This document shows positions 10,110-25,559 of a stretch of 64,000 nt of DNA, piece after piece (positions within the stretch are counted from its first letter, which is position 1; the number at the start of each line of letters is the position of its first letter). Made by a program: the position numbers and the translations under genes. The notes under the pieces were generated by a model that saw only the letters and a list, made by a program, of their open reading frames with translations, had not been told where the DNA came from and made no database searches. This DNA comes from Amycolatopsis mongoliensis. Its GTDB lineage: Bacteria; Actinomycetota; Actinomycetes; Mycobacteriales; Pseudonocardiaceae. The stretch spans positions 7,626,001 through 7,690,000 of the forward strand of contig NZ_CP127295.1 in NCBI RefSeq assembly GCF_030285665.1, read 5' to 3'.

Positions 10110-10320
10110 CGGCTTCCCCTCGGGATCGGTCGGTGATTCACCGATCCGGGAGATCGGTACTCCGGAAACACTTCGCGGCTTCGCTCTCGGCTTCCGACTG
10201 TCATGTATCGGCGTTAGGGAAATTTGTCAAGATGCGTTTTCCGGCGGCAGGTCGGACGTGGCCAGTTATTGTCCTGGATCTGTCAGGTTTGCCGCCTTCT
10301 TCGCCGGTGGCAAGCGGATC

Positions 10321-10362
10321 TAGTATGACATCCGCCTGGTGGGGAGCGATGAAGGAGCGTCA
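10321..10362 (+). promoter_or_regulatory. putative promoter and ribosome site of the TIR operon
   Basis: A -10-like TAGTAT lies at 10321-10326 and a Shine-Dalgarno AAGGAG at 10352-10357. The latter favours GTG 10369 over the upstream in-frame GTG at 10339, which has no ribosome site. The rest of the divergent gap 10110-10320 is less GC-rich than its neighbours but shows no clear -35 box or operator that I can support. Confidence 0.35.
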
Positions 10363-10368
10363 GCACGC

Positions 10369-10950
10369 GTGTACCAGTACGACGTCTTCATCAGCTACCA
10401 ACGTTCGGGCAAGGATGTCCCTTCGTGGGTGCGAAATCATTTTCACCCGCGGTTGACCGAGGTGCTCGACAACAACTTCTACCGAGACGTCCGGGTTTTC
10501 TATGACGACCGGATCCCGACGGGTGCGAACTGGCCCGAGCAGCTGCGGTCGGCGCTTCAGCGCAGTCGCGTGCTGGTGCCGGTGTGCTCTCCGAAGTACT
10601 TCAAGGACGAGTGGTGCTTGGCCGAGTGGCACTCGATGGCGGAGCGGGAAGTGCTCGGCCAAGACTCGCAGGAGAGCCCGCCGCAGCTCATCTACCCGGT
10701 GATCTTCTGCGATTCGTGGAACTTCCCCGACTACGCCAACGCGCGGCGGATGCGTGACCTCCACAAGTGGAACCAGCCCTTCGAACACTTCCAGACCGCA
10801 CCGGCGTACCTCGACTTCAACGAACAGATCGGGCAGATCGCCAAGGAGCTGGAGGAGCTCATCGAACGGGCGCCGGACTGGCGTGACGACTGGCCGGTGC
10901 TCACCCCGGCCCCGGAACCGCCGAAGCGGGCACGGATGCCGAGGTTTTGA
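10369..10950 (+). CDS. TIR-domain protein, probable NADase-type effector or sensor
   Basis: Protein of 193 residues that is almost entirely one TIR domain: YDVFISYQRSG at 4-14 (strand A and BB-loop start), YDDRIPTGANW at 45-55, and SPKYFKDEWCLAEW at 74-87. The Glu86 in the WCxxE motif sits where enzymatic TIR domains carry the catalytic Glu that cleaves NAD+. A short Pro/Arg-rich tail (about residues 165-193) follows. The gene heads a four-gene operon, three bases before the KGGVGR ATPase. FxsC-like and other actinobacterial TIR proteins share this form; the NADase role is inferred. Confidence 0.82.
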   Translation: MYQYDVFISYQRSGKDVPSWVRNHFHPRLTEVLDNNFYRDVRVFYDDRIPTGANWPEQLRSALQRSRVLVPVCSPKYFKDEWCLAEWHSMAEREVLGQDSQESPPQLIYPVIFCDSWNFPDYANARRMRDLHKWNQPFEHFQTAPAYLDFNEQIGQIAKELEELIERAPDWRDDWPVLTPAPEPPKRARMPRF

Positions 10951-10953
10951 TCC

Positions 10954-12591
10954 ATGCCGGGATCGGTCTTCACGTTCTACTCCTACAAAGGCGGGGTCGG
11001 CCGGAGCTTCACCCTGGCCAACATCGCCGTACTGCTTGCGCGCTGGGGCCACCGGGTGCTCTGCCTGGACTGGGACCTCGAAGCGCCCGGCCTCGGCGAC
11101 TACTTCCGGGAACAGCTACCCCGCGCGCCGCGCGGAGGTGTGGTCGACCTCGTCGACGACTTCCGCGCCGGCCGTTTCGAGCCGAAGAAGTACATCCTTC
11201 CGCTGAAGAACGTGGACGTGCTGGACTTCATCGCTGCGGGCCGTGAGGACCGCGGGTACATCGGCCAGGTGCAGGGAATCGACTGGGACGGTCTCTACGA
11301 CGAGGGCTTCGGCGAGTACCTCGAAAAGTGCCGCGACCAGTGGACCGCCGAATACGACTTCGTCTTCATCGACAGCCGGACCGGGATCTCCGACATCGGG
11401 GGCATCTGCACGGCGCACCTGCCGGACCACCTCGTCATGCTGTTCACGGCGAACAGGCAGAGCATCGGCGGCGCGATGGACGTCGCCCGGCGGGCGGACG
11501 CGGCCAGGAATCTGCTGCCGTTCGACCGCTCGCGGCTGACCGTCCTGCCAGTGCTGTCGCGGTTCGACAGCCGGGAGGAGTACGGCCGGTCGGAGGAGTG
11601 GCGGAAGATCGTCGTCGGCGAGACGTCCGAGTTGTACCGGACGTGGCTCGACCAGTCCGTCGCGCCCGCGACGATGTCCCGCCACCTCACACTGCCGTAC
11701 GTGTCCTACTGGAGTTTCGGCGAGCAGTTGCCGGTGCTGTCGGAGAAGACGCCGAGTGCGGACCAGATCGGGTTCGCGCTGGAGACGGTGGCAGCGGTGA
11801 TCGCGTGCCGGCTCGACCGCACCGACCTGCTGGCCGAGAACCGAGACGCCTACGTGTCCGCAGTGCGGGCGAGCCGGCAGGAGTTCAAGCACGACCTGCG
11901 GGTCAGCATCCCACGTTCGTCGGTCGGCATGGCGAACGAGCTGGTCGCCGAGCTGGAGAAGCTCGAAGTCCGCGTGGGGAAGTCGCTGTCGGGTGATCGT
12001 TCACTGCTTGCGCGGGCCGAGGACGACGCGCGGCACCTGTGCCTGCTCGTCGACGGCAAGGTGAGCCGCTGGCAGGCGGCCGAGGTCGAGCTGTTCCTGC
12101 ACCGCACCCTCGGCCAGGACCGCCGGGTGATCCCGATCTTGACGGCGGGTACCGAGGCGGGGATGCTGCCGGGCTACGTCGGCAACCTCAGGTATCTGCG
12201 CTTGGGCGCTTCCCGCGGCTCGGCCGAGGTGGCCCGCGACCTGGTTGGCCAGCTGAAGGGCTTCACCCCGCTCGTCGAGACGGACGACGACCTCGACCTC
12301 GCCACAGTGCTCGGCCAGGCGCGCGGATCTCGGCTGCGCCCGTCCCGTTGGGACCTGGTGGACGAGCTGGTCACCGCCCTGCAGTCGGCAGTCGGGGCCG
12401 GTGACGGCGGGCGGACGAAGGAGCTCGCGGCGGACCTCGCAGTGGCAACCAAGCCCCGGCCCCCGAACGGCGACGACCAGCACGCGGCACCGCCGAGGGT
12501 CCGCCAGTCGATCGACTGGCTCCTGCGGACCCTCGAGGCCCGCGCAAAGACCACGACGCAGCACCCGAACCACCGGAAGGATCTCGGATGA
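10954..12591 (+). CDS. KGGVGR-motif variant ParA/MinD-like ATPase with TIR-like C-terminus
   Basis: Protein of 545 residues. The N-terminal ~300 residues are a SIMIBI (ParA/MinD) ATPase with deviant Walker A YKGGVGRSF (10-19; Arg replaces the usual Lys/Thr context), switch segment LDWDLEAPG near 37-45 and Walker B DFVFIDSRTGISD near 138-150. Residues about 350-430 (LCLLVDGKVSRWQAAEVELF, VIPILTAG, NLRYLRLG) look like a degenerate TIR/SEFIR-type Rossmann domain without the catalytic Glu context. The product is probably a nucleotide-dependent switch. It follows the TIR gene by 3 bases and overlaps the next gene by ATGA. I know the family only as a class found beside TIR and NTPase genes; its function is undetermined. 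Confidence 0.75.
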   Translation: MPGSVFTFYSYKGGVGRSFTLANIAVLLARWGHRVLCLDWDLEAPGLGDYFREQLPRAPRGGVVDLVDDFRAGRFEPKKYILPLKNVDVLDFIAAGREDRGYIGQVQGIDWDGLYDEGFGEYLEKCRDQWTAEYDFVFIDSRTGISDIGGICTAHLPDHLVMLFTANRQSIGGAMDVARRADAARNLLPFDRSRLTVLPVLSRFDSREEYGRSEEWRKIVVGETSELYRTWLDQSVAPATMSRHLTLPYVSYWSFGEQLPVLSEKTPSADQIGFALETVAAVIACRLDRTDLLAENRDAYVSAVRASRQEFKHDLRVSIPRSSVGMANELVAELEKLEVRVGKSLSGDRSLLARAEDDARHLCLLVDGKVSRWQAAEVELFLHRTLGQDRRVIPILTAGTEAGMLPGYVGNLRYLRLGASRGSAEVARDLVGQLKGFTPLVETDDDLDLATVLGQARGSRLRPSRWDLVDELVTALQSAVGAGDGGRTKELAADLAVATKPRPPNGDDQHAAPPRVRQSIDWLLRTLEARAKTTTQHPNHRKDLG

Positions 12592-13217
12592 CCGACCGCT
12601 TGGGACATCACCAGACTGCGGCGATGTTGACGCTGATGGCGCTGGGCCGCCAGGTACTCAATCCGGAACTGAAGGAGCTGGTGGGCTTCACGCTCACGGG
12701 TAAGGATCGCACGCAGCTGCAGGACGGCGGGTACATCACGAGTGTGCAGGTCAGTAAGCCCGGCCGCCCCTACGCCCACGAGCTCACCGAAGACGGATGG
12801 GCCTGGTGCCTGGAGGAGCTCGCAGTCGGTAGCCCGCCGGAGACGCGCGCGCAGAGTCACCTGTGTTCCGCGCTCTACGTGTTCGCCAGCCGACTCGGCG
12901 AGCACCTCGGGCGCCGGAACCTGCAATGGGCCGACATCATCCCGGGCCCGGCCAAATCACTCGAGAACCGCATCCGGACCGCCTACCTCGAGCTTGTCAG
13001 TGAACCGCGCGGCTGGGTCGCTCTGGTGGACCTCCGGCCGAAGCTCGGCGGGGCACCCGCGGAGGAGGTCGACGTCGTACTCAAAGAGCTGAGTCGCACA
13101 GGCAAGGCGCACCTCGTGCCGGAGGAGAATCGCAAGGCCCTCACCACCGCCGATCACCAAGCGGCGATCCGCATCGGCGGTGAGGACAACCACCTCATCT
13201 CGATCGAGGCATCGTGA
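12588..13217 (+). CDS. unknown protein with probable winged-helix domains
   Basis: I do not recognise this 209-residue protein by family. Residues about 12-75 (QTAAMLTLMALGRQ, then a polar beta-hairpin with LTEDGWAWC) read like a winged helix, with TEDG typical of the wing/recognition part; residues about 115-205 contain a second helical segment and ARLA-type hairpin (LRPKLGGAPAEEVDVVLKEL, HLISIEA) that could be another winged helix. It overlaps its upstream neighbour by ATGA and its downstream AAA-HerA neighbour by 4 bases. That tight coupling suggests an adaptor or DNA-binding partner of the large ATPase (inference). Confidence 0.6.
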   Translation: MTDRLGHHQTAAMLTLMALGRQVLNPELKELVGFTLTGKDRTQLQDGGYITSVQVSKPGRPYAHELTEDGWAWCLEELAVGSPPETRAQSHLCSALYVFASRLGEHLGRRNLQWADIIPGPAKSLENRIRTAYLELVSEPRGWVALVDLRPKLGGAPAEEVDVVLKELSRTGKAHLVPEENRKALTTADHQAAIRIGGEDNHLISIEAS

Positions 13218-16200
13218 TGGACGAGCTGACGGCGCTGGCAACACTGCGGTTCGACTGGGCGGACACACCCGACCATGTCTGGCGGGATTCGCCCTACCAC
13301 GTTGACGGGCTGCACGCCGATGCACTCGACGCACTCGACACCGGCATTCGCGACGCCATCGCCAGCGACGGACCCAGCCCCATCGGACTCGTTCTGCGTG
13401 GGCTGAAAGGCGTCGGCAAGACCCACCTCCTGGGCCTCGTCCGCAGGCACGTGCACCGCGCGCGGGGATACTTCTTCCTCGATGACGTGACCGCCGCCGA
13501 AGCGTTCTGGGACAACACGGCCGAGGCACTGCGTCGTGGCCTGTCCCGGCTGGACGAATCGGGCGAGTCGCAGCTGAAGAGCTTTCTTCTACGAGTGTGC
13601 TTGCGAGCTCAAGTCGGCGCCGATGTCACGACGACCATCCGGCGTGGGCGCGGGCTGAAGGTGGACGACCTCGAAGCCTTCGTCGACGGAGTACGTCGCC
13701 TGGACGAGATGGTTGCCGATCGGTGTGAGGACACCGCGCGAGCGCTTGTGCTCATCGCCAGCCGGGACCGCGGTTCAAAATACATCGGTGAGGATTACCT
13801 GGACGGAAACGACGAGCTCACCGCCGAAGCTCGGGAGTGGAATATCTATTCACGGCCCAAACCCTCGCGTGTGCTCGTCGAGGAGATCACTCAGCTCCTC
13901 TCCCTCACCGGTCCGGTCGTGATTGCCGTGGATCAGCTCGACACGCTGGTCGCGCGATCGATGAGGCGCACTCAGGAGATCGGCGACAGCGTCGAGGAGG
14001 ACCTGCTCGTGGCGCAGATCGCCGACGGGCTCATGGGGCTGCGGGAGGTCACCCACAAGACCCTGACCGTCTTGGCATGTCTGCCCAGTACTTGGGAACA
14101 GATCAAGACGAAGGCGGCGGGCACCGTTCCTGACCGGTTCCGGGAGTCGGTGACGCTCGGCCGGATCACCGACGCCGGCGTCGGTCGGGCCTTGGTGGAG
14201 AAACGGCTCGGGGTGGCCTACCAGGCCATGGACTTCATGCCACCCCATCCGACCTGGCCCGTCGCTCCGTCGGCGTTCGAAGGAACGTGGGAACAGTGGA
14301 CCCCGCGGGAACTTCTGAAGCGCATCGGCGCCCACATCGACGTGTGTCTGCGCAGCAAGCAGATCCGGGAACTCAGCTCTTTCGACGAGCGGGTCCCGGT
14401 GGCAGTGGCCCCGGTGCGGACGGCCCTGGAGAACGACCGCTTCGGCGAGCTCGACACCGAATTCGAGAGGGTGAAGGCGGAAGTCGATCCGGGAAAGCTG
14501 CTCACCGAAAAGACCGAGGACAAGGTGATGCCAGGTCTTCTGTCGGCCGCGCTGCGTTGCTGGATCGCCGAAGTCGGCGACGACGACCTGGAATGGTCGT
14601 GCGAACACCAGAACGGGCGCAGCGAGGTGCACGCCTGGCTCACCCGGACAATCGACGAGACGGCCGACCTCCAAGAGCACTGGGCGTTCCGGGCGATAGC
14701 CGCTCGGCAACCCCTCGCCGCGCTGAGCCGGTTCCGGAAAGCTCGGTCCGCCGCGGGACAGCGGCTGGGGGTGGACAACCGCCATCTCGTGATCATCCGC
14801 GAACCGAAGTGGTCGCGGGGCGAAAAGACCCAGCTGGAACTCGACGAGTTCCGGAAGGCGGGCGGCCGGAGCATGCCGCTCTCCGACAAGGACGTGCGCA
14901 CCTTCTGGGCCCTCGATCGAATGCTCGGCAACGGTGGCCGTGAGCTGCACGAGTGGCTGATCGACCGCCGTCCCGCGAGCCGGTCGGATCTGTTGTCCGC
15001 CGTTCTTCCGGAGAAGCCGTCGGGGCAGCCCACCGAAGGGACGCATCCGCCGCCGGTGGACGGGGAGATCACGCTCGGCACCGTCGTCGGCTCGGGGGAG
15101 CCGGTGCGGGTCGAACTCTCCGCCCTCCGCAAACACGCCGCCGTGTTCGCCGGTTCCGGTTCGGGGAAGACCGTGCTGCTCAGGCGGATCGTGGAGGAGT
15201 GCGCTCTCCTGGGGGTCTCCGCGATCGTCCTGGACCCGAACAACGACCTCGCCCGGCTCGGTGACGCCTGGCCCACGCCGCCCGACGGCTGGGGGCCTGA
15301 CGACGCCCAGCTGGCGAAACGGTACCTGGCCGAAACCGACGTCGTCGTCTGGACACCGGGCCGGGCGACCGGGCGGCCGCTCGCGTTCCAGCCGCTGCCG
15401 GACTTCGCCGGCGTCCTCGACGACTCCGACGAGTTCGCGGCGGCGGTCGAGGTGGCGGTGGCGACACTGGCGCCCCAGGCTCGGCTGACCGGGAGCACCG
15501 CGAAGACGAACATCGGGCTCGCCGTGCTGCGGCAGGCCGTAGTGCGGCACGCGCGGACCGGGTCGCGCAGCCTGCCCGAGCTGATCGAGCTGCTGACCGA
15601 GCTGCCCGAGGACGTCAGCAACCTCAACGACGCCCCGCGCATCGCGGCCGGCTTGGCCGAGGTGCTGAAGGCGGCGATGGTCAACGACCCGCTGTTCGCG
15701 GGCGGCGGCGAGCCGGTGGACCCGGGCGCGCTGCTCACCCCGGCTCCCGGCAAGCGGGCCCGGGTGTCGGTGATCAGCTTCGTCGGCCTGCAGGCCGACG
15801 AGCAGCGGCAGAACTTCGTGAACCAGCTGCAGATGGAGCTGTTCGCGTGGATCAAGCGCAACCCGGCGGGCGACCGGCCGCTGGGCGCGTTGTTCGTGAT
15901 GGACGAAGCCCAGACGATGGCGGCGTCGGGCACCCTTACGGCGAGCACGCGCAGCACGATCGTCCTCGCCTCGCAGGCGCGCAAGTACGGCTTGGGCCTG
16001 CTGTTCGCGACCCAGGCGCCCAAGGGGCTGCACAACCAGGTGGTCGGCAACGCGATGACGCAGTTCTTCGGCCGCCTGAACAGCCCGGCCCAGATCGCGG
16101 CGGCCAACGACCTGGCCCGGGCCAAGGGAAGCCCCGTCGCGGACATCTCACGCCTGGAGCGCGCCCAGTTCTACGTGGCGGGGGAGGCGTTCGGGTTCCG

Positions 16201-16294
16201 CCAGGTGGCGACGCCGCTGTGCCTGTCCTACCACCCGGCCAGCCCCCTTCGCCTGGAGGAGGTGATCGCCCGGGCGCGCGATGAGCAGGAGTGA
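13214..16294 (+). CDS. double ATPase: AAA/STAND-like module fused to HerA/FtsK-like motor
   Basis: Protein of 1026 residues with two P-loop NTPase modules. The first has Walker A GLKGVGKTH (63-71) and Walker B VVIAVDQLD near 235-243. The second has Walker A GSGSGKTVLL near 646, Walker B FVMDEAQT near 894 and the downstream GLLFATQAPKGL and FFGRLN segments typical of HerA/VirB4/FtsK translocases. HerA-type motors drive DNA or protein translocation, and are paired with nucleases or sensors in several anti-phage systems; no nuclease is seen here. Start GTG 13214 (or ATG 13217) overlaps the preceding TGA. A terminator hairpin follows at 16299. Confidence 0.82.
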   Translation: MMDELTALATLRFDWADTPDHVWRDSPYHVDGLHADALDALDTGIRDAIASDGPSPIGLVLRGLKGVGKTHLLGLVRRHVHRARGYFFLDDVTAAEAFWDNTAEALRRGLSRLDESGESQLKSFLLRVCLRAQVGADVTTTIRRGRGLKVDDLEAFVDGVRRLDEMVADRCEDTARALVLIASRDRGSKYIGEDYLDGNDELTAEAREWNIYSRPKPSRVLVEEITQLLSLTGPVVIAVDQLDTLVARSMRRTQEIGDSVEEDLLVAQIADGLMGLREVTHKTLTVLACLPSTWEQIKTKAAGTVPDRFRESVTLGRITDAGVGRALVEKRLGVAYQAMDFMPPHPTWPVAPSAFEGTWEQWTPRELLKRIGAHIDVCLRSKQIRELSSFDERVPVAVAPVRTALENDRFGELDTEFERVKAEVDPGKLLTEKTEDKVMPGLLSAALRCWIAEVGDDDLEWSCEHQNGRSEVHAWLTRTIDETADLQEHWAFRAIAARQPLAALSRFRKARSAAGQRLGVDNRHLVIIREPKWSRGEKTQLELDEFRKAGGRSMPLSDKDVRTFWALDRMLGNGGRELHEWLIDRRPASRSDLLSAVLPEKPSGQPTEGTHPPPVDGEITLGTVVGSGEPVRVELSALRKHAAVFAGSGSGKTVLLRRIVEECALLGVSAIVLDPNNDLARLGDAWPTPPDGWGPDDAQLAKRYLAETDVVVWTPGRATGRPLAFQPLPDFAGVLDDSDEFAAAVEVAVATLAPQARLTGSTAKTNIGLAVLRQAVVRHARTGSRSLPELIELLTELPEDVSNLNDAPRIAAGLAEVLKAAMVNDPLFAGGGEPVDPGALLTPAPGKRARVSVISFVGLQADEQRQNFVNQLQMELFAWIKRNPAGDRPLGALFVMDEAQTMAASGTLTASTRSTIVLASQARKYGLGLLFATQAPKGLHNQVVGNAMTQFFGRLNSPAQIAAANDLARAKGSPVADISRLERAQFYVAGEAFGFRQVATPLCLSYHPASPLRLEEVIARARDEQE

Positions 16295-16398: not shown

Positions 16399-16764
16399 TC
16401 ACACCGCTGTGACGACTTGCCACACGATCGCCAGCAACCCGACGACGATCGGGTGCACCGCGACCGCGGCGCGGGCTAGCGAGCGCAGCACCAGGACGAC
16501 GCTGCGATCGCCCACGCAGGCCAGGCGGGCGATCCCGTCGCCGTAGGCGTACGCGAACGGGGACGGGGTCCCGCCGTCCCGGCGACGCGTGCGGCTGATC
16601 CAGAACTCCGGGAGCACCAGCACCGCCGCCACCAGGGAAATCGTCTCACGGACGGGCTCGACGAGCGTCCGGAGAACCACGGGGAGGGCGAACCGGACGG
16701 CGAGGCAGGCCACCACGACGACGAATGCCGACGTCGCCAGCGCGTGCGGGAAAGCCGGCCACAT
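16399..16764 (-). CDS. small membrane protein
   Basis: Protein of 121 residues with hydrophobic stretches near residues 9-30 and 36-52 and again at 88-121 (VVLVLRSLARAAVAVHPIVV and VGLLAIVWQVVTAV), suggesting three or four membrane helices with a positively charged RTRRR loop between. No family recognised. Start ATG at 16764 overlaps the TGA of the SPFH-like gene, so it is the last gene of the four-gene leftward operon and probably the membrane component of that module. Confidence 0.65.
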   Translation of the reverse strand: MWPAFPHALATSAFVVVVACLAVRFALPVVLRTLVEPVRETISLVAAVLVLPEFWISRTRRRDGGTPSPFAYAYGDGIARLACVGDRSVVLVLRSLARAAVAVHPIVVGLLAIVWQVVTAV

Positions 16765-17831
16765 CAGGCACCGCCGGCGACGTCTTCGGCGATGTGCGGG
16801 CCCTCCTGGGCCGGCCGCGCGGTGTCACCGTTGCGGCCCGGTTCGAACGGCAGTCGGCGCGCCGCGTCGGTGCCGGTCAGCACGCGGCGGATGGACGTCT
16901 GCATCCACTGCATCATGACCCGGACCTCGTCGTCGATCTGCCAGCGGTCCAGCGCGTCGGAGCCGATCAGCTCGGTGACGAAGTTCAGGACGTCCTTGCG
17001 GTGCGTGTCCCGCTCGGCCACCAAGGCTTCGACGACCGCTTGGACGTTCCGCGGGTTCTGCGCCAGCTGCAACGCGAACTGGTCGAGGTCGCCCTGCTCG
17101 ATCAGTTTCTTGAACGCCCGGACCTCGGCGTCGAGCCGGAGGGCGCGCTCGGTCTGGGCGTCCATCCTCAGGCGCACCAGGACGTTCGTCGAGAGCCCGT
17201 ACTCCGCCCGGAGCCAGCGCGAGTCGAACTGGGCGGCGTTTGCCGCCTTCTCGGCGGTTTCGACGTCGGAGGTCTCGAGGGTCCGGCTCGCCTGCCGGAG
17301 CCCGGCCAGCAATTGAGGGACGACGAGCGGGCGGATGTCCCGGAGTCCCTTGGTCACGACGGTTTCCGGGTCTTCGACCCGCCACTGGACGTCCACCTCG
17401 GTGCGGAAGACGAACGCGTCGCCGGCACTCGGCAGCGTGACTTCCAGGCTGAGGTTGCGCAGCGAGAGGTCGACGTCGTACACCGACCGGTAGCCGCCCC
17501 AGAGCAGTTCCCCGGTGGTCGGCTGTTTCGTCCAGGAGAAGACGTCGAGCCGGCCGTCTCGTCCGACGAACACGCGGGCGACCCAGGGCCGCTGGGCCTT
17601 GTGCCTCCGGAGCAGGCTCAACCGGCTGACCCGTTCGGCACCGACGATCGGCGCGTAGGCGGACGCGGCAAGCGTCCGCACGGTCGACTCGTAGTTCCGC
17701 TCTGCTGCCTTCTGCCAGCCACCGTCGGCCGGCGCCTCCGCGGGGGCGCCGGCCGGCGCGCTGGGTGGCGGAGTCGCGGTCCGCTCGCGTTCTTTCCCCC
17801 CGGCCTCGGGACTGATCGTCTTTTCGGTCAT
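16764..17831 (-). CDS. SPFH/band-7 (prohibitin-like) domain protein
   Basis: Protein of 355 residues. A Pro/Ala-rich N-tail (about 1-40) precedes an SPFH-like core: FRTEVDVQWRVEDPETVV near 145-162, PLVVPQLLAGLRQASRTLE, then the YGLSTNVLVRLRMDAQTERA segment and a helical tail to residue 330. SPFH proteins form membrane-associated cages and have turned up in phage defence and stress complexes. I see no N-terminal membrane anchor, so attachment may come from the small membrane protein encoded next (ATGA overlap at 16764). Start ATG at 17831 overlaps the NTPase stop, also ATGA. Confidence 0.7.
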   Translation of the reverse strand: MTEKTISPEAGGKERERTATPPPSAPAGAPAEAPADGGWQKAAERNYESTVRTLAASAYAPIVGAERVSRLSLLRRHKAQRPWVARVFVGRDGRLDVFSWTKQPTTGELLWGGYRSVYDVDLSLRNLSLEVTLPSAGDAFVFRTEVDVQWRVEDPETVVTKGLRDIRPLVVPQLLAGLRQASRTLETSDVETAEKAANAAQFDSRWLRAEYGLSTNVLVRLRMDAQTERALRLDAEVRAFKKLIEQGDLDQFALQLAQNPRNVQAVVEALVAERDTHRKDVLNFVTELIGSDALDRWQIDDEVRVMMQWMQTSIRRVLTGTDAARRLPFEPGRNGDTARPAQEGPHIAEDVAGGA

Positions 17832-20104
17832 ACCGCCACCCTCGTTCCTTCACCGTTCCGCAGCGCCGTGCTCAGCCGAGCCGCGACTTCAGGCCGCAGC
17901 GGGTCCGCCCAGTCCTCGGTCAGCCGGCCGAGCAGGTACTGCAACCGTTGTGCGTCGCCGTCGTGGACCACGAGCCCGGCCATGAACCTGGCCAGCACGT
18001 CGAGCAGGGCCGGGTCCCGCTGGCTCGAGCGGACCCAACGGGCCAGCAGGAACCGGGCCAGGTCGTCGCCGTCCCGGGACCGCAGGGCCTTGGCCAGCAG
18101 CTCGGTGATCCGCCGGGCGGTGTCGTCGTCCTGCGCGCACAGCGCCAGCAGCAACGGCCAGCGCTGCGCGCCGTGGGGCAGGACCGGCCGGTCGTTCTCC
18201 ATCGACACCGACAGGTAGTCGAGTTCGAAGCCGTAGAAGCTCGCCAGGTGCCGGAGACTGGTCAACGCGAGCCTGCGCAGGCTGCTCCGCTTGCTCGCCA
18301 GCCACCGGCGCAGATGATCGAGCACCTCGGGCACCTTGCCGAAGGCCAGCAGCTTGGCCACGCTGAAGCCGGCGATCCAGACGACCTCGTCGTCGCCTCC
18401 GCGAGCGAGCGGATGGGCGCGCTCCGACGGTGTGCCCAGCACCCGCAGCTCCTCGAGTGCTTCGAGCACGCGACGGCGCCCGAGAGCGAAACCGTAGGTC
18501 GCCGCCGCTGTCCAGCGCTCCTCCGCTGTCCCGAACCGGCGCCACCAGCGGAGTCGCTCGATGATCGCAGGCCGGACACCGTCGTCCTGAGCCGCCTGGT
18601 CGAGGGCGATCGCGGCGGACCGCCGCCGGAGGGACTGGAAGTCGTCCCAGTTGTCGGAGCAGGCGTTCGGTTCGATCATCTTGGTGAACACGGTGACGAA
18701 GTCCAGCCGGCCCAGGTATCCGATCGCCTGGGCGGCCCGAACCCACATCATCGGCCTGCTGTCCTTGCCGACTTCGGCGAACCACGGCTCGAGCGCGGTC
18801 CGCAGCCGGTGGTGGTGGCGCCAGACGTGGTCCAGCACCGCGGTGGGGTACCGCGGGTCGTGGAATTCGAGGAACTCCATCGGGATGAGCTCACGGCCGA
18901 AAGTCGCGTGCCCGCCGACGATCTTCGCGCGCAGCGCGGGCAACCGGTTGCTCCGGTCGTCCGCGAACAGCGACATCTCACGTTTGTCCTTGTCGGTCCC
19001 CTTACCGGTGAACTTGCGGCCCAGCGCCTCTGCGGCTTCGGCAACCAGCGTGTAAGGCGACCGGTTGAACACCGCCAGCGCGATCCGGAACGCGGCCAGC
19101 CGCAACGCCTCGTTGAGCTCGGGGCCGGGGGACAGGCCGAGCAACTCGCCGAACCACTCGGTCACCTGCTGGCCGACGGCCTGCTTGGCGTCCTGTTCGA
19201 CTTCCTCCCGGGTGCTTTCGCCGCGCGCGTGCTTGGCGAGCAGCGTGGCCATCCAGGCCGATTCGGACGGGCGGGGGCACGGCCCCAGGGCCTCCGCGGT
19301 CCAGGCGGCTTCGCTCAGCCGGCGCAGGTTCCGTGCGAAATCCGGGGGATCGGCAGGCCGGATCTCATGCTCGAGGTGCTTTCGGAGCAGGTCCTTCGGG
19401 TCCGGCGCCCGGTAGTCGAAGGCGTACCGGCCGAAGGCGCTGACGTGCCGCGGGTCGACGGCGGCGACCAGGACGCCGTAGCAGCGGGCTTCCTCCAGTT
19501 TGCCCCTGAACTCGTCGAGGATGGCTTCGGTGAGGCCGCCGCTGACCCGGCTCGGCAGCTCCACCACGTAGCCGGCGTCTTCTTCCCGGAGCTTCCCGGA
19601 GGCGAGCGACTTCGCGGTCTTGCCGCACCCGAGCCGGAAGACCCGGTTCGGCGCGAGCCGGTCGAGCAGGTGCATGGCCGTGGTGGTGCGTCCCGTTCCC
19701 GGCTGACCCCGCAGCAGGATGACGCGCCGTTTCTCCAATGCGTCGTACATCTCCGGGTACCGGTCGACCGCGAAGTACCGTTCCCTCGTCCAGCGGAGGA
19801 CATCGCCGGGCACGGGGCCGGCCGCGGGCGCCGCCTTCTCGCCGAGGAACAGCTCGTAGTTGTCCCCGACGTGCAGGTCGCGGAGGTTGGCCGTGCCGAT
19901 CGAGACCCGCGCCTTCGGGGCGAGATCGGGCGAGTAGAACTGCTCGCCGACGGACATGGCGTCGTTCACTTCCCGCCCGTTGTCGGACGAGAGCCGCTTG
20001 TCGCTGTCGCGGCCGCCGTCGACGGGTTCCTTGCCCGGCTGCAGGCCCGCTCCGCCGGTACCCGGCTCTTGAGTGGCCGGTCCCTCGTTCTCGGCGGCGC
20101 TCAT
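17828..20104 (-). CDS. P-loop NTPase with N-terminal amyloid-like motif and helical-repeat C-terminus
   Basis: Protein of 758 residues. The first ~60 residues are polar and low-complexity. Residues 67-88 hold a short Gly/Asn/Val-rich stretch (VSIGTANLRDLHVGDN) resembling amyloid-type signalling motifs. A P-loop lies at 133-141 (GQPGTGRTT), followed by a STAND-like ATPase region with VLVAAVDPRH as a possible Walker B strand. The C-terminal ~350 residues are helical and HEAT-like (repeated LRRLALTSLRHLA-type helices). This layout (short N-terminal motif, NTPase, repeat sensor) is that of NLR/STAND receptors. It overlaps the cyclase-like gene upstream (ATGA, 20101-20104) and the SPFH gene downstream. 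Confidence 0.65.
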   Translation of the reverse strand: MSAAENEGPATQEPGTGGAGLQPGKEPVDGGRDSDKRLSSDNGREVNDAMSVGEQFYSPDLAPKARVSIGTANLRDLHVGDNYELFLGEKAAPAAGPVPGDVLRWTRERYFAVDRYPEMYDALEKRRVILLRGQPGTGRTTTAMHLLDRLAPNRVFRLGCGKTAKSLASGKLREEDAGYVVELPSRVSGGLTEAILDEFRGKLEEARCYGVLVAAVDPRHVSAFGRYAFDYRAPDPKDLLRKHLEHEIRPADPPDFARNLRRLSEAAWTAEALGPCPRPSESAWMATLLAKHARGESTREEVEQDAKQAVGQQVTEWFGELLGLSPGPELNEALRLAAFRIALAVFNRSPYTLVAEAAEALGRKFTGKGTDKDKREMSLFADDRSNRLPALRAKIVGGHATFGRELIPMEFLEFHDPRYPTAVLDHVWRHHHRLRTALEPWFAEVGKDSRPMMWVRAAQAIGYLGRLDFVTVFTKMIEPNACSDNWDDFQSLRRRSAAIALDQAAQDDGVRPAIIERLRWWRRFGTAEERWTAAATYGFALGRRRVLEALEELRVLGTPSERAHPLARGGDDEVVWIAGFSVAKLLAFGKVPEVLDHLRRWLASKRSSLRRLALTSLRHLASFYGFELDYLSVSMENDRPVLPHGAQRWPLLLALCAQDDDTARRITELLAKALRSRDGDDLARFLLARWVRSSQRDPALLDVLARFMAGLVVHDGDAQRLQYLLGRLTEDWADPLRPEVAARLSTALRNGEGTRVAV

Positions 20105-21333
20105 CCGAACAACCCGTTGCCGTGGTACACCGGGCCATTGACGTACGACCCGTGGATGACGGCGCTGCCGATGTTCGAGACCGGCCCGTTGACCACCCCG
20201 GCGGTGTGGGCGGGCGGCGCCGTGGCCTTCGTCTGCCGGGCGCTGCTCGCGTGCGGAGCCATCGCGTACCCGGGCACGCGCAACCAGGATTCCGGCTCGG
20301 TGCCGGTGCGGCGGTAGCTGTCGGGATGAACCATGCCGGCGCCTGAACCGGCCACGAACCGCCGGTGCACGGCCTCGGACACGACGACGACCACCGGCGC
20401 GTCGGCCACTCCGGCGAGCACGGCCGAAGCCGGTTCGCCCGTGGCGAGCCTGCGCGCCGCGTCGAGGTCGCGGCCGGCGGCGATGCCGACGGACACCGTG
20501 ACGCGCCCGGACGTCCCGACCGCCTCGTGCAGGTGGTGCACCCACACCCCTAGCACGAAATCGCCGGAGACGGCGGAAGAGAGCGGAACGACGAACGCGT
20601 CGCCGGTGCCGGGAACGTGGTCCGGACGGGGGATTCCCGCCGCGTCGAACGACGCGAGCGCCGCCGCGCGAGCGCCTTCCGAGCCCGCGGCCGGGGCCAC
20701 CCAGATCGTCAGGTCTTCCGGTTCGATCAGCCTCGACAGCCGTTCGGCGGAGACGCCGGGTACCCGGATCCAGGCTTTCTCCCGGAATTCCTTCTCCGGC
20801 TCGTCCACCAGGACCGGGGTGAAGTCCGCGGCGGACAGAGTGGTGAGCCGCTGCCGGACGGAACCGAAGATCGGTTCGGAAAGGACCTGGACTAGGTTTG
20901 CTTCGGGAACCAGCGCCAGCGCGGCGCGGGACGGCTTGGCGTCGCGCAGCCGGCAGACGTGCACCGGGCCGTCCGCGGCGTAGCCGCAGGCCGCCGGGAC
21001 CGCGCCGCCGTGGTGGATCGCCAAGCGCAGCCGCAGCCGCGCGTTCGGCAGCCGGTCGTGGTTGAACCGCCCGAGCCACGCGTCGAGTTCGCGCACGAAC
21101 GGATCGACCAGCGCGAGCTCGGCTCCGCTGTCGGCGATGAAGTCCAGGAACCCGTCACCGGCCGGCTGCCGGTGCCACGCCGCGGGATCCAGGCCCGCGG
21201 CCGCCCCCGCCGCGTCCACTGCGGTGGTGAGCGCCTGCTGGAGATCGAACTGCTGCTGCCCGTCGCGGCTGCCGTACCGCCAAGCGTCGACGGCGAGCAA
21301 CAGCATCCTGGTGAAGTCGATGTGGTCCGGCAA
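20101..21333 (-). CDS. tandem nucleotidyl-cyclase-like protein with C-terminal amyloid-like motif
   Basis: Protein of 410 residues. Residues about 5-135 form a class III nucleotidyl-cyclase-like domain: LLLAVDAWRYGSRD supplies the first metal Asp (D16), RQPAGDGFLDF the second (D60), and LRLAIHHGGAV the strand before the dimer arm. Residues about 205-335 repeat the fold in diverged form (TGDAFVVPL retained, first Asp lost), so the protein may be an internal pseudo-dimer with one metal-binding half. Residues 379-410 are a Gly/Asn/Val-rich tail with the repeated word VNGPV. Possible roles are cyclic nucleotide synthesis (as in Pycsar) or nucleotide sensing; the substrate cannot be told. It is 45 bases behind a CRP/FNR gene. 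Confidence 0.65.
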   Translation of the reverse strand: MPDHIDFTRMLLLAVDAWRYGSRDGQQQFDLQQALTTAVDAAGAAAGLDPAAWHRQPAGDGFLDFIADSGAELALVDPFVRELDAWLGRFNHDRLPNARLRLRLAIHHGGAVPAACGYAADGPVHVCRLRDAKPSRAALALVPEANLVQVLSEPIFGSVRQRLTTLSAADFTPVLVDEPEKEFREKAWIRVPGVSAERLSRLIEPEDLTIWVAPAAGSEGARAAALASFDAAGIPRPDHVPGTGDAFVVPLSSAVSGDFVLGVWVHHLHEAVGTSGRVTVSVGIAAGRDLDAARRLATGEPASAVLAGVADAPVVVVVSEAVHRRFVAGSGAGMVHPDSYRRTGTEPESWLRVPGYAMAPHASSARQTKATAPPAHTAGVVNGPVSNIGSAVIHGSYVNGPVYHGNGLFG

Positions 21334-21378
21334 CCCGTCCTCCTCCGAAGATCGGTGACCCTCCGGTGGTCCCGAGCC

Positions 21379-22071
21379 CTAACTCTGAGCCACGTCTTCG
21401 TCCCTGATCCCGTATTGATACGGGTTCGCCCGGTCGGCTACGCCGAACCGGGACAGCCCCGCGAGGTCGTCGACTACGATCCGTCGGGATTTCCGGTGCA
21501 CCAGACCGGATCGGTGCAACCGGTGCAGAGCTTTCTCGAACGTCGCCAGCGCGACCCCGGCCAGCGAAGCGATCTCGGTCTGCGTCAGCCCGACGTCGAG
21601 ATCCCAGCCGTCCGGTGTCCGGACTCCGTAGGCGCGCGCGATTTCGGCGAGGACCCGGCCGACCCGCACCGGCGCAGGGCACGCGACGAACTCCGCCCGG
21701 CGGACGTTCGCTCCGGACAGCCGCTGGCTGAGCGAGCCGGCCATCGCGGCCCACGCGTCGGGCCTGCGGTCGAAGAACGTCGTCAGCTGCGCGTTCCCGA
21801 TCAGTTTGACGCGGGCAGGCGTGCAGGTCACCACGTCCGCGGAGCGTCGGCGGTGCTCCAGCATCGCCATTTCGCCCAGCAAGTCACCGCGGCCGCGCAG
21901 GCCGAGGAGGACCGGCCGGCCGAACTCGGTGTCCACGAACACTTTCACCAGCCCGTCGAGCACGACCAGTACGTGGTGGCTTTCCTCCCCCTGCCGGAAG
22001 ACGTGCTGGCGCGCGCCGTAGGTGACCGTGGTGCCGAGTTCGAGGAACCGTTGCCGGGTGCGGGCGGACAT
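21379..22071 (-). CDS. CRP/FNR-family transcriptional regulator
   Basis: Regulator of 230 residues from the ATG: cyclic-nucleotide-binding beta-roll (about 15-120, with GLRGRGDLLGEMAML) and a C-terminal winged helix (LTQTEIASLAGVALATFEKA, about 165-185). No Cys cluster, so not an Fe-S FNR. The ATG at 22071 has no ribosome site, whereas a CTG at 22113 does (GGGAGGGAG), and the extra 14 residues read WPDGSLLGRM, matching FPPGSLLAGL in the paralogue at 22836; the true start may therefore be CTG 22113. It precedes the cyclase-like operon by 45 bases and is divergent from the PycTM-like gene. Confidence 0.85.
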   Translation of the reverse strand: MSARTRQRFLELGTTVTYGARQHVFRQGEESHHVLVVLDGLVKVFVDTEFGRPVLLGLRGRGDLLGEMAMLEHRRRSADVVTCTPARVKLIGNAQLTTFFDRRPDAWAAMAGSLSQRLSGANVRRAEFVACPAPVRVGRVLAEIARAYGVRTPDGWDLDVGLTQTEIASLAGVALATFEKALHRLHRSGLVHRKSRRIVVDDLAGLSRFGVADRANPYQYGIRDEDVAQS

Positions 22072-22287
22072 GCGGCCGAGGAGGCTGCCGTCGGGCCAAG
22101 GCTGCTGGTTCAGCTCCGCTCCCTCCCTGGAGTGCCGCGGACGTCCATTGCGCCCCGCTCACGACGGTGACCACCACCTCAGAGGACGGGATCGCGCGGG
22201 AAAAGTCACCAGCGGAGAACCCATCGGAGGACGGCGTGACCGCCTGGCGGGAGCGGGAAGCTGGGCGGGAACGAGGGGAGCAGCGCG

Positions 22288-22827
22288 ATGCGCAACGGCA
22301 GCACCAAGGCGCCGGCCGGGCTGAAGGGCGGGGTGGGCCGCTGGGAAGCGGAGCTCGGCACGGCCTTGACGACGGTTTCGTTCTTCCAGGGCGCGGTCCA
22401 GCACGCCGACGACAAGGTGCGGACCGTCGTCGCCGTGCAGACGATGATCACCGCGATGGTGACCGCTCAGGCCGGGCTGCTCGGCGCACCGCGTCCGGCG
22501 TCCGTGCCGCGGCTCGCGGTGTTCGCAGTCCTGCTCTGTTTCGCGATTGCGTATGCCTACTCGTCGTTCCACCTCGTGCAGGCCTTCCGGCCGCGGACGC
22601 GCGCGCCGTCGGCGCGGAATCGGTTCGCCTTCCCCAGCGTCGCGGCCGGCACCGCCGATCCGGTTCTCCGGACCCTGCGCGACCAGTGCGCCCAGGCCCA
22701 CGAGCTGGCCGGGCTGCTGGCGGCTCTGGCGCTGCGCAAGCACCGTCACCTGCGGTCCGCGCTGGCCGGAACCTACGTCCTGTTCGCCGGGGGACTGGGA
22801 ATGCTGGTCCTGACGGCGGTGTCCTGA
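22288..22827 (+). CDS. PycTM/DUF5706-like three-helix membrane protein, possible Pycsar effector
   Basis: Membrane protein of 179 residues. A cytosolic helix with HADDKVRTVVAVQT leads into a first membrane segment (about 50-68), a second follows (VFAVLLCFAIAYAYSS, about 75-95), then a cytosolic stretch with RNRFAFPSVA and a helix QAHELAGLLAALALRKHRHL running into the last segment (about 155-177). This order matches the Pycsar transmembrane effector family, which binds a cyclic pyrimidine nucleotide and permeabilises the membrane. Start ATG at 22288 has GAGGGGAG upstream. It lies between two CRP/FNR genes and near a cyclase-like gene, which strengthens but does not prove the assignment. Confidence 0.6.
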   Translation: MRNGSTKAPAGLKGGVGRWEAELGTALTTVSFFQGAVQHADDKVRTVVAVQTMITAMVTAQAGLLGAPRPASVPRLAVFAVLLCFAIAYAYSSFHLVQAFRPRTRAPSARNRFAFPSVAAGTADPVLRTLRDQCAQAHELAGLLAALALRKHRHLRSALAGTYVLFAGGLGMLVLTAVS

Positions 22828-23549: not shown

Positions 23550-23716
23550 ACTATGGTGTGAGAGGCCGTCGGCAAAGGCCCAGAGGTGAGATCGCGGCGA
23601 TCCTGCGCGTCCAATCCGGCGAGCAGTTTTGACCCGCCCAGCGGCTGACGAGCCGACCGGCGCCGCGGAAGCCGGGCCGGGCTGCGTCAGCCGGTTCCGG
23701 GCACGAAGTCCGGCGC

Positions 23717-23741
23717 GTGGCCCCGGCCAAGCCGGGGCCAC
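23717..23741 (-). terminator. intrinsic terminator after the KAS III-like gene
   Basis: Perfect hairpin with arms GTGGCCCCGG (23717-23726) and CCGGGGCCAC (23732-23741) and a 5-base loop, nine bases past the stop of the leftward KAS III-like gene. The remainder of the gap 23551-23716 shows nothing further. Confidence 0.75.
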
Positions 23742-23749
23742 GAGTCACG

Positions 23750-24702
23750 TCACACGTGGCGGAAACACAAGGTGCCCCACTGGAAACCGGCGCTGATCGA
23801 CGACACCACGTACGTGTCTCCGGGGGCGACCGCCCCGCGCCGAAGCGCTCGTGCAATGCCGTGAACACGCCCGCCGATCCCGTGTTGCCCAGGCTCTGCA
23901 CCGTGATCGGTGCCCTCGCCAACGGAACCCCGAGCTTGTCCAGGGCCGCCTGGATGATGTTCAGGTTCGCCTGGTGCAGGAAGAAGTGCGTGACCTCCTC
24001 CACCGGTACCGCCGCGTTGTCCGTCGCCCGGAGGATGCTGTCCGGCAGGCAGCGGGTCGCCGTGTTCCAGACCGCTCTGCCGTTCATCTTCGGGTATTCG
24101 CCGGCCGCCGGGATCTCGACGTCGTAGGACAGCTCCGAGCCGAAGTCCCAGCCCAGCAGGCCGCCCTGTGGCGCCGATGCGCGCGTCAGGATCGCCGCCC
24201 CCGCCGCGTCGCCGAAGAACACCCTCGTCGTGCGGTCCGCCGAGTTCGTCACCCGGGCCGCGCAGTCGGCCGCCAGCACCAGGACCGTCCGGGCCGCCGA
24301 CGTCTGCGGCAGGTGCGCCGCCAGGAACAGTGCCTGGACCCCGTTCGCGCACGCCGTCTGCGTGACGTCCAGTGTGAGCGCGCGGTCCGCGCCCAGCGCC
24401 TCCTTGACGATCAGGGCCGTCGACGGCAGCGGCTGGTCGGAGGTGTAGGGCCCGACGATGATCGCGTCGACGTCGCGGGCGGTGACGCCGGCCGCGGCCA
24501 GTGCCGGGCGGGCCGCCGCCACGCACATGTCCGACGTCGCCCGGTCCGGCGCCAGCCGGCGGCGGGCGCGGATGCCGGTGCGGCTGACGATCCACTCGTC
24601 CGAAGTGTCCAGCGTCGCCGCGAGTTCGGCGTTGGTGACGACCTCCGGCGGCAGGTGGACTCCGGTACCCGTGATCGCGACGGGAACGGGCAGGCCGGTC
24701 AC
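23750..24702 (-). pseudogene. KAS III-like ketoacyl-ACP synthase, frameshifted near the C-terminus
   Basis: FabH/KAS III-type thiolase-fold condensing enzyme, about 317 residues if corrected. The triad is visible: Cys in TQTACANG, His in FFLHQANLN and Asn in LGNTGSAG. Starting at GTG 24702 the frame runs well to HERFGAG, then shifts; the natural ending GAVAPGDTYVVSSISAGF through CFRHV continues in another frame and stops at 23750. The break is at the four-C run 23833-23836 (GGGG on the coding strand), where one more G restores the frame. Left as it is, the frame would read on with an unrelated tail to 23551. GTGA overlap couples it to the ThiF-like gene. Substrate unknown; real decay or a homopolymer sequencing error. 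Confidence 0.8.
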
Positions 24703-25559
24703 CGGGCCCCTCCGGCGTAGACGTTCCGGGACGGGTGCAGCTGCCGGTCGAGGTCGGTGTAGAACCGGCCGGACCCGCAGGGCTGGCCGAGCAGGATGCG
24801 CCGGGCCGCCTCACCGCACAGCGCCCCGCCGAGCGCGACGCCGGACGCCAGCTGCGGCCAGCTGCTCAAAGTACGGCCCAGCTCGCCGAACGACGCCGCC
24901 AGCTCCAGGTTGATCCGCTCCGCGTCGACCATCGCGAGGATCAGCTCGACCTTCTCCCGGCGGCCGAGCTCGAGCAGGTCGACGGACTTCACGTCGCCGA
25001 GCAGCCCGTGCAGCAGCGGCCGGTCGGGCTCTTCGTCGAACCGCTCGACGTCGAGCATGCCGCGGTCGTTGCAGTCCATCACGATCAGGATGCCGAGGTC
25101 GCCCGCGTACTCGCGGGCCGCGATCTTCACCCACGGTGTGTCGCACTCCTCGACGAGGAGGTCGATCCCGCCGCGGAAGAACTCCTCGATGGTGTCCGGG
25201 TTCAGGCCGTCGCGCTGGATCTCGATGTCGAGGTACGGGTCGATCTCGACCATCTGGCGCGCCGACAGCACCGCTTTGTTGACGCCGAGGTCGTGCACCC
25301 CGCCGCGCAGCCGGTTCAGGCTCGACAGGCCGAAGTCGTCGAAGTCGGCCAGCCGGTACGCACCGCCGATGCCTTCCAGCGCGAACGTCAGCGCCGCGCT
25401 GTTGCCCACCGACGGCCCGATGATCCCGATCCGCTTGCCGAACAGGCTGCGCTGCTCGGGCCGCTCGATCCGGCCCCGGTTACGGTCGGTGCGCACCAGC
25501 CGGAACTCCTCCCGGGGCAGCACGTGCACGAGCCGCCCGGACCACGGGTACCAGGCCAA
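24699..25559 (-). CDS. ThiF/E1-like adenylyltransferase (Rv1355c-like), apparently 5' truncated
   Basis: ThiF/MoeB-type domain: RIGIIGPSVGNSAALTFA gives the nucleotide-binding loop, followed by LADFDDFGLSSLNR and a DLLVEECDTPWVK strand. Such enzymes adenylate a carboxylate; this subfamily is known from mycobacterial Rv1355c and its substrate is unclear. The annotated start is a TTG at 25559 with no ribosome site, but the same frame is open and protein-like for 24 more codons upstream (AEIERLKDDQ, GVPRWAYGT) to an in-frame TGA at 25632-25634, directly continuous with the GNAT-type frame before it. It therefore looks like the second half of one gene broken by a nonsense codon. Confidence 0.6.
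   Translation of the reverse strand: MAWYPWSGRLVHVLPREEFRLVRTDRNRGRIERPEQRSLFGKRIGIIGPSVGNSAALTFALEGIGGAYRLADFDDFGLSSLNRLRGGVHDLGVNKAVLSARQMVEIDPYLDIEIQRDGLNPDTIEEFFRGGIDLLVEECDTPWVKIAAREYAGDLGILIVMDCNDRGMLDVERFDEEPDRPLLHGLLGDVKSVDLLELGRREKVELILAMVDAERINLELAASFGELGRTLSSWPQLASGVALGGALCGEAARRILLGQPCGSGRFYTDLDRQLHPSRNVYAGGAR

What the first reader, a model, noticed from the sequence alone, without database searches (positions are those of the whole stretch)
16399..22827. Cyclase-like operon with CRP/FNR regulator and a divergent PycTM-like membrane protein: possible expanded Pycsar-type locus
A tandem class III cyclase-like protein (metal Asp16 and Asp60 kept in the first half), a STAND-like NTPase, an SPFH-like protein and a small membrane protein overlap by ATGA at every junction, directly behind a cyclic-nucleotide-binding regulator. 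Divergent to that regulator is a three-helix protein resembling Pycsar transmembrane effectors. Signal maker, signal binder and membrane effector in one place suggest cyclic-nucleotide-triggered membrane disruption, with extra NTPase/SPFH parts not in described two-gene Pycsar systems.
Basis: partly seen in the sequence, partly recalled or inferred. Interest (0 to 1): 0.85.

Follow-up and report, generated by a model that had tools for sequence, protein, structure and literature searches.

The report
Cyclic-nucleotide alarm module in actinomycetes
A conserved cluster of genes in soil bacteria appears to link an immune-receptor-like protein to an enzyme that may make a small alarm molecule and to a membrane protein that may then damage the cell's own membrane; it resembles a known anti-virus system but uses a different enzyme and extra parts.

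Summary
The order CRP2, PycTM-like, CRP1, CYC, STAND, SPFH recurs in 5 of 5 relatives with a full-length CYC. CYC is a class III cyclase homologue (hhalign probability 93-96) keeping both metal Asp and the catalytic Arg, but not the Asn, and it is outside the PycC models. In 394 genomes 22 of 64 PycTM hits (own included) lie within 10 kb of a CYC; 0.18 expected. Two new features: a palindrome in 7 of 7 CRP1-PycTM intergenic regions, and a pair-specific motif shared by CYC tails and the N-termini of neighbouring STANDs (36 pairs, 0 of 20,000 shuffles), as in amyloid-signalling NLR/effector pairs; it is weak in the window itself. Best reading: an NLR-like STAND assembles the cyclase, whose product drives a PycTM (or DUF4407) membrane effector and the CRP regulators. 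Catalysis, ligand and phage defence are untested.

The parts
21379..22071 (-). CRP1, CRP/FNR-type regulator with cyclic-nucleotide-binding domain and HTH; probably starts about 15 codons further upstream
   Evidence: Pfam cNMP_binding 2.8e-16, HTH_Crp_2 2.6e-12; phosphate cassette GEMAMLEHRRRSA
20101..21333 (-). CYC, tandem class III cyclase-like protein, 410 aa, TTG start; first half with D16, D60, R128, second half degenerate
20119..20187 (-). CYC C-terminal motif (residues 383-405, GPVSNIGSAVIHGSYVNGPVYHG)
   Evidence: shared with STAND N-termini at family level; weak for the window's own pair
17828..20104 (-). STAND protein, 758 aa, P-loop GQPGTGRT (Lys replaced by Arg)
   Evidence: Pfam nSTAND3 27.7 bits
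19841..19912 (-). STAND N-terminal stretch facing the CYC tail motif (residues 65-88, ARVSIGTANLRDLHVGDNYELFLG)
16764..17831 (-). SPFH/Band 7-like protein, 355 aa, no hydrophobic helix found
   Evidence: Pfam Band_7 E 7.6e-4, below cut-off
16399..16764 (-). small membrane protein, 121 aa; found in 2 of 5 relatives
   Evidence: hydropathy
22288..22827 (+). PycTM-like membrane protein, 179 aa, three hydrophobic helices
   Evidence: PADLOC PycTM 6.6e-6, Pfam 22.5 bits; 35 of 35 database homologues carry PF18967
22836..23531 (-). CRP2, second CRP-type regulator (ORF open from 23741; start near 23531 inferred), convergent with the PycTM-like gene
   Evidence: Pfam cNMP_binding 4.9e-16; kept in 5 of 5 relatives
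22220..22235 (.). palindrome CCCATCGGAGGACGGC, one mismatch to CCCRTC-N4-GACGGG; candidate CRP operator, about 50 bases upstream of the PycTM-like start

Best explanation
The locus is one form of an actinomycete conflict module with the core CRP, CYC, STAND (often plus SPFH) and a membrane effector (PycTM, DUF4407 or both). Proposed mechanism: the STAND protein acts as an NLR-like sensor; its N-terminal motif recruits or templates the matching C-terminal motif of the cyclase, and clustering lets the cyclase, whose fold works as a dimer, make a cyclic mononucleotide. The nucleotide activates the membrane effector, ending in membrane damage and growth arrest, and is read by the CRP-type regulators, which control the divergent promoters through a conserved palindrome. 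SPFH may organise the membrane site. Shown here: homologies, conserved order, CYC-PycTM linkage, the palindrome, and the family-level motif match. Inferred: catalysis, identity of the nucleotide, assembly, membrane damage, trigger, and an anti-phage role.
For: Layout kept in 5 of 5 relatives with a full-length CYC. 10 of 11 PycTM-like hits in 100 genomes (own included) adjoin a CYC. 22 of 64 Pfam PycTM hits in 394 class genomes (21 of 63 without the own one) lie within 10 kb of a CYC, 0.175 expected. CYC aligns to class III cyclases at hhalign probability 93-96, score 51-66, column shuffles at most 16. Of 17 CYC in PycTM loci, 17 keep both Asp and the Arg and 10 also the Asn. CRP1 keeps the phosphate cassette. 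Palindrome in 7 of 7 intergenic regions. CYC-tail to STAND-N match: own partner mean 52.5, other partners 28.5, 0 of 20,000 shuffles, 36 pairs; 4 of 20,000 in 19 pairs of the window's clade. A paper states that amyloid signalling motifs work in pairs at NLR N-termini and C-termini of effectors of collocated genes (PMC12261475, passages). Neighbours at 9147-16294 score as bSEFIR, PDC-M28B and HerA/mad8.
Against: No structure, chemistry or infection data. The window CYC lacks the Asn (Val124). The window's own motif pair is weak: rank 29 of 36, rank 15 or 12 of 19. The catalytic-domain control also shows a small own-partner excess (37.0 against 33.3, 24 of 20,000 shuffles), so relatedness contributes; with cheaper gaps the clade test weakens to 94 of 20,000; a profile comparison of tails with N-termini found nothing (blocks partly mis-cut). 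The palindrome was read off the same regions it is counted in, and its exact copies are not in excess genome-wide over a reversed control. The STAND P-loop Lys is Arg. Five loci (L126, L127, L129, L131, L136) lie beside what I recognise as rpoC (recall), a fixed place unusual for mobile defence. Two genomes keep the PycTM-like gene without CYC in the stretch fetched (L089; L091 and L093, one genome). 42 of 64 PycTM hits are not near a listed CYC.
Confidence: 0.5

Rival explanations
1. A plain Pycsar-like system: the cyclase itself senses infection and its cyclic nucleotide acts on the PycTM-like protein; CRP, STAND and SPFH are regulatory additions.
For: PycTM-family effector beside a class III-type cyclase; canonical class III cyclases occur in 5 of 60 PycTM loci fetched.
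Against: CYC is outside the PycC models. STAND is present in 15 of 17 PycTM loci with CYC and its N-terminus pairs with the CYC tail, so it looks integral. In some loci DUF4407 takes the place of PycTM.
Confidence: 0.15
2. A regulatory, non-immune switch: CYC and CRP form a cyclic-nucleotide circuit that controls membrane or developmental functions in multicellular actinomycetes; the PycTM-like protein is a physiological channel.
For: CRP and palindrome at the divergent promoter; five loci at a fixed place beside what I recognise as rpoC (recall).
Against: Patchy presence (PycTM-like family in 11 of 100 genomes including the own one), different flanks in the five relatives, swapped membrane partners, defence-like neighbours in the window.
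Confidence: 0.2
3. Pseudo-cyclase: in the window CYC has lost catalysis and acts as a nucleotide-binding scaffold or decoy between STAND and SPFH; the PycTM-like protein and the CRPs answer to a nucleotide made elsewhere in the cell.
For: Asn replaced by Val in the window and its five close relatives, Lys replaced by Gln, degenerate second half; inactive cNMP cyclase domains are reported in related conflict systems (PMC7159879, passages).
Against: Both metal Asp and the Arg stay nearly invariant; 10 of 17 CYC in PycTM loci keep the Asn.
Confidence: 0.15

Closest known systems
Pycsar (PycC cyclase with PycTM or PycTIR)
   Same: class III cyclase-like protein encoded with a PycTM-family membrane protein; a cyclic-nucleotide-binding domain protein beside it
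   Different: cyclase outside the PycC models; the binding-domain protein is a DNA-binding CRP regulator; STAND and often SPFH accompany it; DUF4407 can stand in for PycTM
NLR-associated amyloid signalling pairs (BASS families)
   Same: matched short motif at the N-terminus of a STAND/NLR-like protein and the C-terminus of the neighbouring gene's product
   Different: the partner is a cyclase-like protein (the word cyclase occurs 0 times in the main text of the two papers searched); membership of a named BASS family not tested; weak in the window itself
Conflict systems with cNMP cyclase and Band 7 domains (Kaur et al. 2020, PMC7159879)
   Same: cNMP cyclase coupled to Band 7, inactive STAND proteins, CRP-like sensors, bias to multicellular bacteria (passages)
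   Different: those passages concern MoxR-vWA ternary and related systems; Pfam shows no MoxR or vWA in the seven genes here; PycTM is not named in the passages seen
CBASS / SMODS-SLATT systems
   Same: nucleotide signal plus small membrane effector
   Different: the nucleotide enzyme here is class III-like; no other nucleotide enzyme was found among the seven genes

Membership tests
Pycsar | cyclase belongs to the PycC clades | tested here: not met
   0 PADLOC hits to window CYC; four positive controls hit PycC models at best E 3e-74 to 3e-97; hhalign to 8 PycC-type sequences probability 0.5 and 54, to class III 93 and 96
Pycsar | PycTM-family (or PycTIR) effector beside the cyclase | tested here: met
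   PADLOC PycTM 6.6e-6; Pfam 22.5 bits, below its 27.2 cut-off; 12 of 19 family members hit Pfam PycTM at E 1 or better; 35 of 35 database homologues carry PF18967
Pycsar | product is cCMP or cUMP | not testable with these tools
   purine Lys is Gln56; compatible, not decisive
Pycsar | protects against phage | not testable with these tools
   no infection data
Class III nucleotide cyclase | homology over the catalytic domain | tested here: met
   hhalign probability 96.4, E 1.3e-9, 163 columns; unrelated controls 0.6 and 0.8; no single-sequence Pfam hit
Class III nucleotide cyclase | two metal-binding Asp | tested here: met
   D16 in 55 and D60 in 56 of 59 rows, 3 rows mis-extracted
Class III nucleotide cyclase | transition-state Asn and Arg | tested here: not met
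   Arg128 kept (55 of 59 rows); Asn is Val124 in the window and in L031-L035; among 17 CYC in PycTM loci Asn in 10, Asp in 3, Val in 4
Amyloid-signalling NLR/effector pair | matched motif at STAND N-terminus and partner C-terminus, neighbouring genes | tested here: inconclusive
   family level clear: 36 pairs, 0 of 20,000 shuffles, window clade 19 pairs, 4 of 20,000; the window's own pair is not significant (rank 29 of 36)
Amyloid-signalling NLR/effector pair | motif forms amyloid and passes the fold on | not testable with these tools
   needs peptides
STAND/NLR NTPase | intact Walker A Lys | tested here: not met
   GQPGTGRT in the window; Arg in 5 of 5 close relatives; among 14 further PycTM-linked loci shown, Arg in 10, Lys in 3, Ala in 1
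CRP family, cyclic-nucleotide binding | phosphate cassette G-E...R-[ST]-A | tested here: met
   GEMAMLEHRRRSA in CRP1

The most novel reading that the evidence does not exclude
An NLR-like STAND protein switches on a nucleotide cyclase by prion-like templating through a shared, pair-specific motif, turning a local receptor event into a diffusible cyclic-mononucleotide alarm that activates PycTM or DUF4407 membrane effectors and reprogrammes transcription through CRP regulators: a union of amyloid NLR signalling with Pycsar-type signalling, spread across actinomycetes.
Probability: 0.35. Interest if true: 0.88.

Novelty: new variant of a known kind. Interest (0 to 1): 0.7.

Why it matters
If true, it joins two immune logics known separately, amyloid-type receptor-to-effector signalling and cyclic-mononucleotide second messengers, and gives multicellular actinomycetes an NLR-triggered chemical alarm. 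It would place many actinobacterial cyclase-like, STAND, DUF4407 and PycTM proteins without described function into one testable system. The pair-specific motif and the palindrome make direct, inexpensive tests possible.

Tried and rejected
CYC by sequence found no solved structure; its profile gave 11 weak hits, E 0.15-1.1, of which seven are cyclase-type chains. The PycTM-like profile found no relevant structure. Base specificity from CRP1: its C-helix Asn aligns with an Asn of actinobacterial CRP chains (M. tuberculosis by recall), so it does not argue for cUMP. An exact palindrome scan of the intergenic regions found nothing shared; the degenerate palindrome was then seen by eye, so one search is partly circular; L033, L034 and L093 are similar to each other; by dinucleotide shuffles of the window (4.8 matches per 64 kb at one mismatch) about 0.12 rather than 0.027 sites would be expected in the seven regions. 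First motif-pair test used badly cut N-termini (own 44.8, other 30.8, 0 of 20,000); replaced. In one search five of 19 STAND blocks were cut wrongly (97 of 20,000; profile comparison E 0.077, nothing); redid it. Of the 13 database pairs, matched by equal contig length, six are confirmed by consecutive locus tags; three proteins sharing contig length 7360 (P0016, P0026, P0083) were left out as ambiguous. Rows L014, L017 and L019 are wrong segments. A search for DUF4407 literature gave three papers, listings only.

Full report
What is there. The window lies in a 10.8 Mb single-contig genome (G000); named close homologues are mostly Amycolatopsis. On the minus strand, 22071 down to 16399, run CRP1, CYC, STAND, SPFH and a small membrane protein. 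Two junctions are ATGA, one is TGATG, and CRP1-CYC is a 45-base gap. A PycTM-like gene (22288-22827, plus strand) is divergent from CRP1, and a second CRP gene (CRP2) is convergent with it.

Conservation of the layout. In 100 related genomes including the own one, 47 have some CYC-like match (E 1e-4 or better), and five besides the own genome have one over nearly the whole length. In all five the order is CRP2, PycTM-like, CRP1, CYC, STAND, SPFH in the same orientations; the small protein was found in two of five; HerA, its upstream partner, FabH and ThiF of the window were not found in those 18-20 kb stretches at E 1e-3. The PycTM-like family occurs in 11 of the 100 genomes, in 10 next to a CYC. 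The eleventh (G058, L093) keeps CRP1, the PycTM-like gene and CRP2 without CYC in the stretch fetched, and a further named genome (L089) keeps only the PycTM-like gene and CRP2 there.

What CYC is. The window CYC has no Pfam, PADLOC or NCBIfam hit, and its 34-member family has no convincing Pfam hit. Its N-terminal domain family (59 rows, 3 wrong) against 22 actinobacterial class III cyclases gives hhalign probability 93 (score 51; reversed 16; 30 column shuffles 9-15); a set of 29 that includes linked homologues gives 96 (score 66; shuffles at most 16; unrelated alignments 17 and 21). D16, D60 and R128 are kept; the purine-selecting Lys is Gln56 and the transition-state Asn is Val124. In 17 CYC from PycTM loci both Asp and the Arg are present in 17 of 17, and the Asn position is Asn in 10, Asp in 3 and Val in 4. 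Roles of these residues are recalled knowledge of class III cyclases. CYC is not a PycC: PADLOC PycC models find four class III cyclases of PycTM loci at best E 3e-74 to 3e-97 and give nothing for the window CYC; one linked CYC (L160) has a marginal PycC hit, E 0.019.

A wider module. Pfam PycTM in 394 genomes of the class: 64 hits in 50 genomes. I fetched the surroundings of 60 of the 64 (left out: own, G378, G359, G273). CYC is present in 17 of 60, canonical class III cyclases in 5, CRP without CYC in 3; the other 35 gave neither. Of the 17, CRP is found in 15, STAND in 15, SPFH in 10. By coordinates 22 of 64 hits (own included) are within 10 kb of one of the 150 CYC hits listed (list truncated), against 0.175 expected with 8 Mb genomes. 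From the other side, the 20 best CYC hits without a Pfam PycTM within 10 kb (G000 and G073 passed over) give 7 with STAND, of which 6 have a DUF4407-type membrane protein (2 of these also a PycTM-like one), and 13 without STAND, 6 of them with CRP. Nine further relatives' loci include 8 with STAND, and all 8 have a PycTM-like or DUF4407-type protein. DUF4407 was confirmed by Pfam in 7 of 10 proteins scanned and in L162. So the membrane partner looks swappable.

Regulation. CRP1 keeps the cyclic-nucleotide phosphate cassette. A 6-4-6 palindrome, CCCRTC-N4-GACGGG, is within one mismatch in 7 of 7 CRP1-PycTM intergenic regions (window 22220-22235), against 3 in 178 kb of the same loci (0.027 expected; about 0.12 by the shuffles). 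Exact copies are at 2-4 places per genome in the seven genomes searched, not in excess over a reversed control, but in G003, G021, G038 and G058 one of those few is this site. L089, without CRP1 in the stretch fetched, keeps an exact copy upstream of the PycTM-like gene, so CRP2 is at least as good a candidate binder. The motif was read off these regions, so the count is not an independent test.

The CYC-STAND motif. Reading CYC tails beside the N-termini of their neighbouring STANDs showed locus-specific matches, for example RFGGSLVAGDQHGVSGGQVTGNVHLGG against RFGGSAVGGSQHGVSGGQVGGDVYMGG in L126. In 36 adjacent pairs (L152 dropped) the local alignment score is 52.5 on average with the own partner and 28.5 with others; the own partner ranks first in 17 and in the top three in 24; 0 of 20,000 partner shuffles reach the own mean. 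Controls: reversed tails 28.1 against 26.3; catalytic part 37.0 against 33.3, reached by 24 of 20,000 shuffles. In the window's clade 19 pairs give 28.2 against 23.6, reached by 4 of 20,000 (94 of 20,000 with cheaper gaps), with clear cases (SGPVSNIGSAVI against SGPVSNIGHATI in P0005/P0072). The window's own pair is weak (rank 29 of 36; 15 or 12 of 19). Passages of two papers describe amyloid signalling motifs as pairs at NLR N-termini and C-termini of effectors encoded by neighbouring genes; the word cyclase occurs in neither main text (PMC12261475, PMC8086366).

Mechanism and limits. The most economical reading is receptor (STAND) to cyclase through the motif, and cyclase to effector and CRP through a cyclic nucleotide. 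Homology, order, linkage, palindrome and family-level motif pairing are shown; catalysis, ligand, assembly and immunity are inferred. Against a plain immune reading: five loci (L126, L127, L129, L131, L136) lie beside what I recognise as rpoC (recall), the STAND P-loop lacks Lys, and the window CYC lacks the Asn. For it: patchy presence, changing flanks, swapped membrane partners, and defence-like neighbours at 9147-16294.

Literature. Search listings that showed no description of this module: (library of open-licence PubMed Central papers only). Passages were seen in PMC11224242, PMC7159879, PMC8195603, PMC8086366 and PMC12261475; no paper was read whole. The 2021 Pycsar paper and the 2020 BASS paper are not held, so an earlier mention there cannot be excluded.

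Noticed in passing
9147-16294: Defence-like neighbours: SEFIR/TIR_2 plus NPCBM protein (PADLOC bSEFIR 5e-29), ParA-CATASP protein (PDC-M28B 1.6e-25), and an AAA plus HerA-type ATPase (mad8 3e-16).
   Followed up: partly
23551-24814 (minus strand): The ketoacyl-synthase III gene seems split between two frames: the end I would expect for this family (recall) lies in the overlapping frame 23750-24814. Described only.
   Followed up: no
22072-22118: CRP1 probably starts about 15 codons upstream of 22071: an in-frame stretch LNQQPWPDGSLLG, starting at a CTG codon, looks conserved in the relatives' intergenic regions.
   Followed up: no
L126, L127, L129, L131, L136: The CRP-CYC-STAND-SPFH-PycTM module lies beside what I recognise from recall as rpoC in five loci, a fixed chromosomal position.
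   Followed up: no
L036-L039, L186, L187, L190, L195 and others: DUF4407, a membrane protein family without known function, is a recurrent partner of CRP-CYC-STAND loci.
   Followed up: partly
L189, L191, L192: CRP-CYC pairs without STAND lie beside a 676-727 residue protein with three hydrophobic helices; two of the three have a weak VWA hit.
   Followed up: no
24699-25559: ThiF/E1-like gene overlapping the ketoacyl-synthase III gene by four bases, with a weak PADLOC E1-E2 hit.
   Followed up: no
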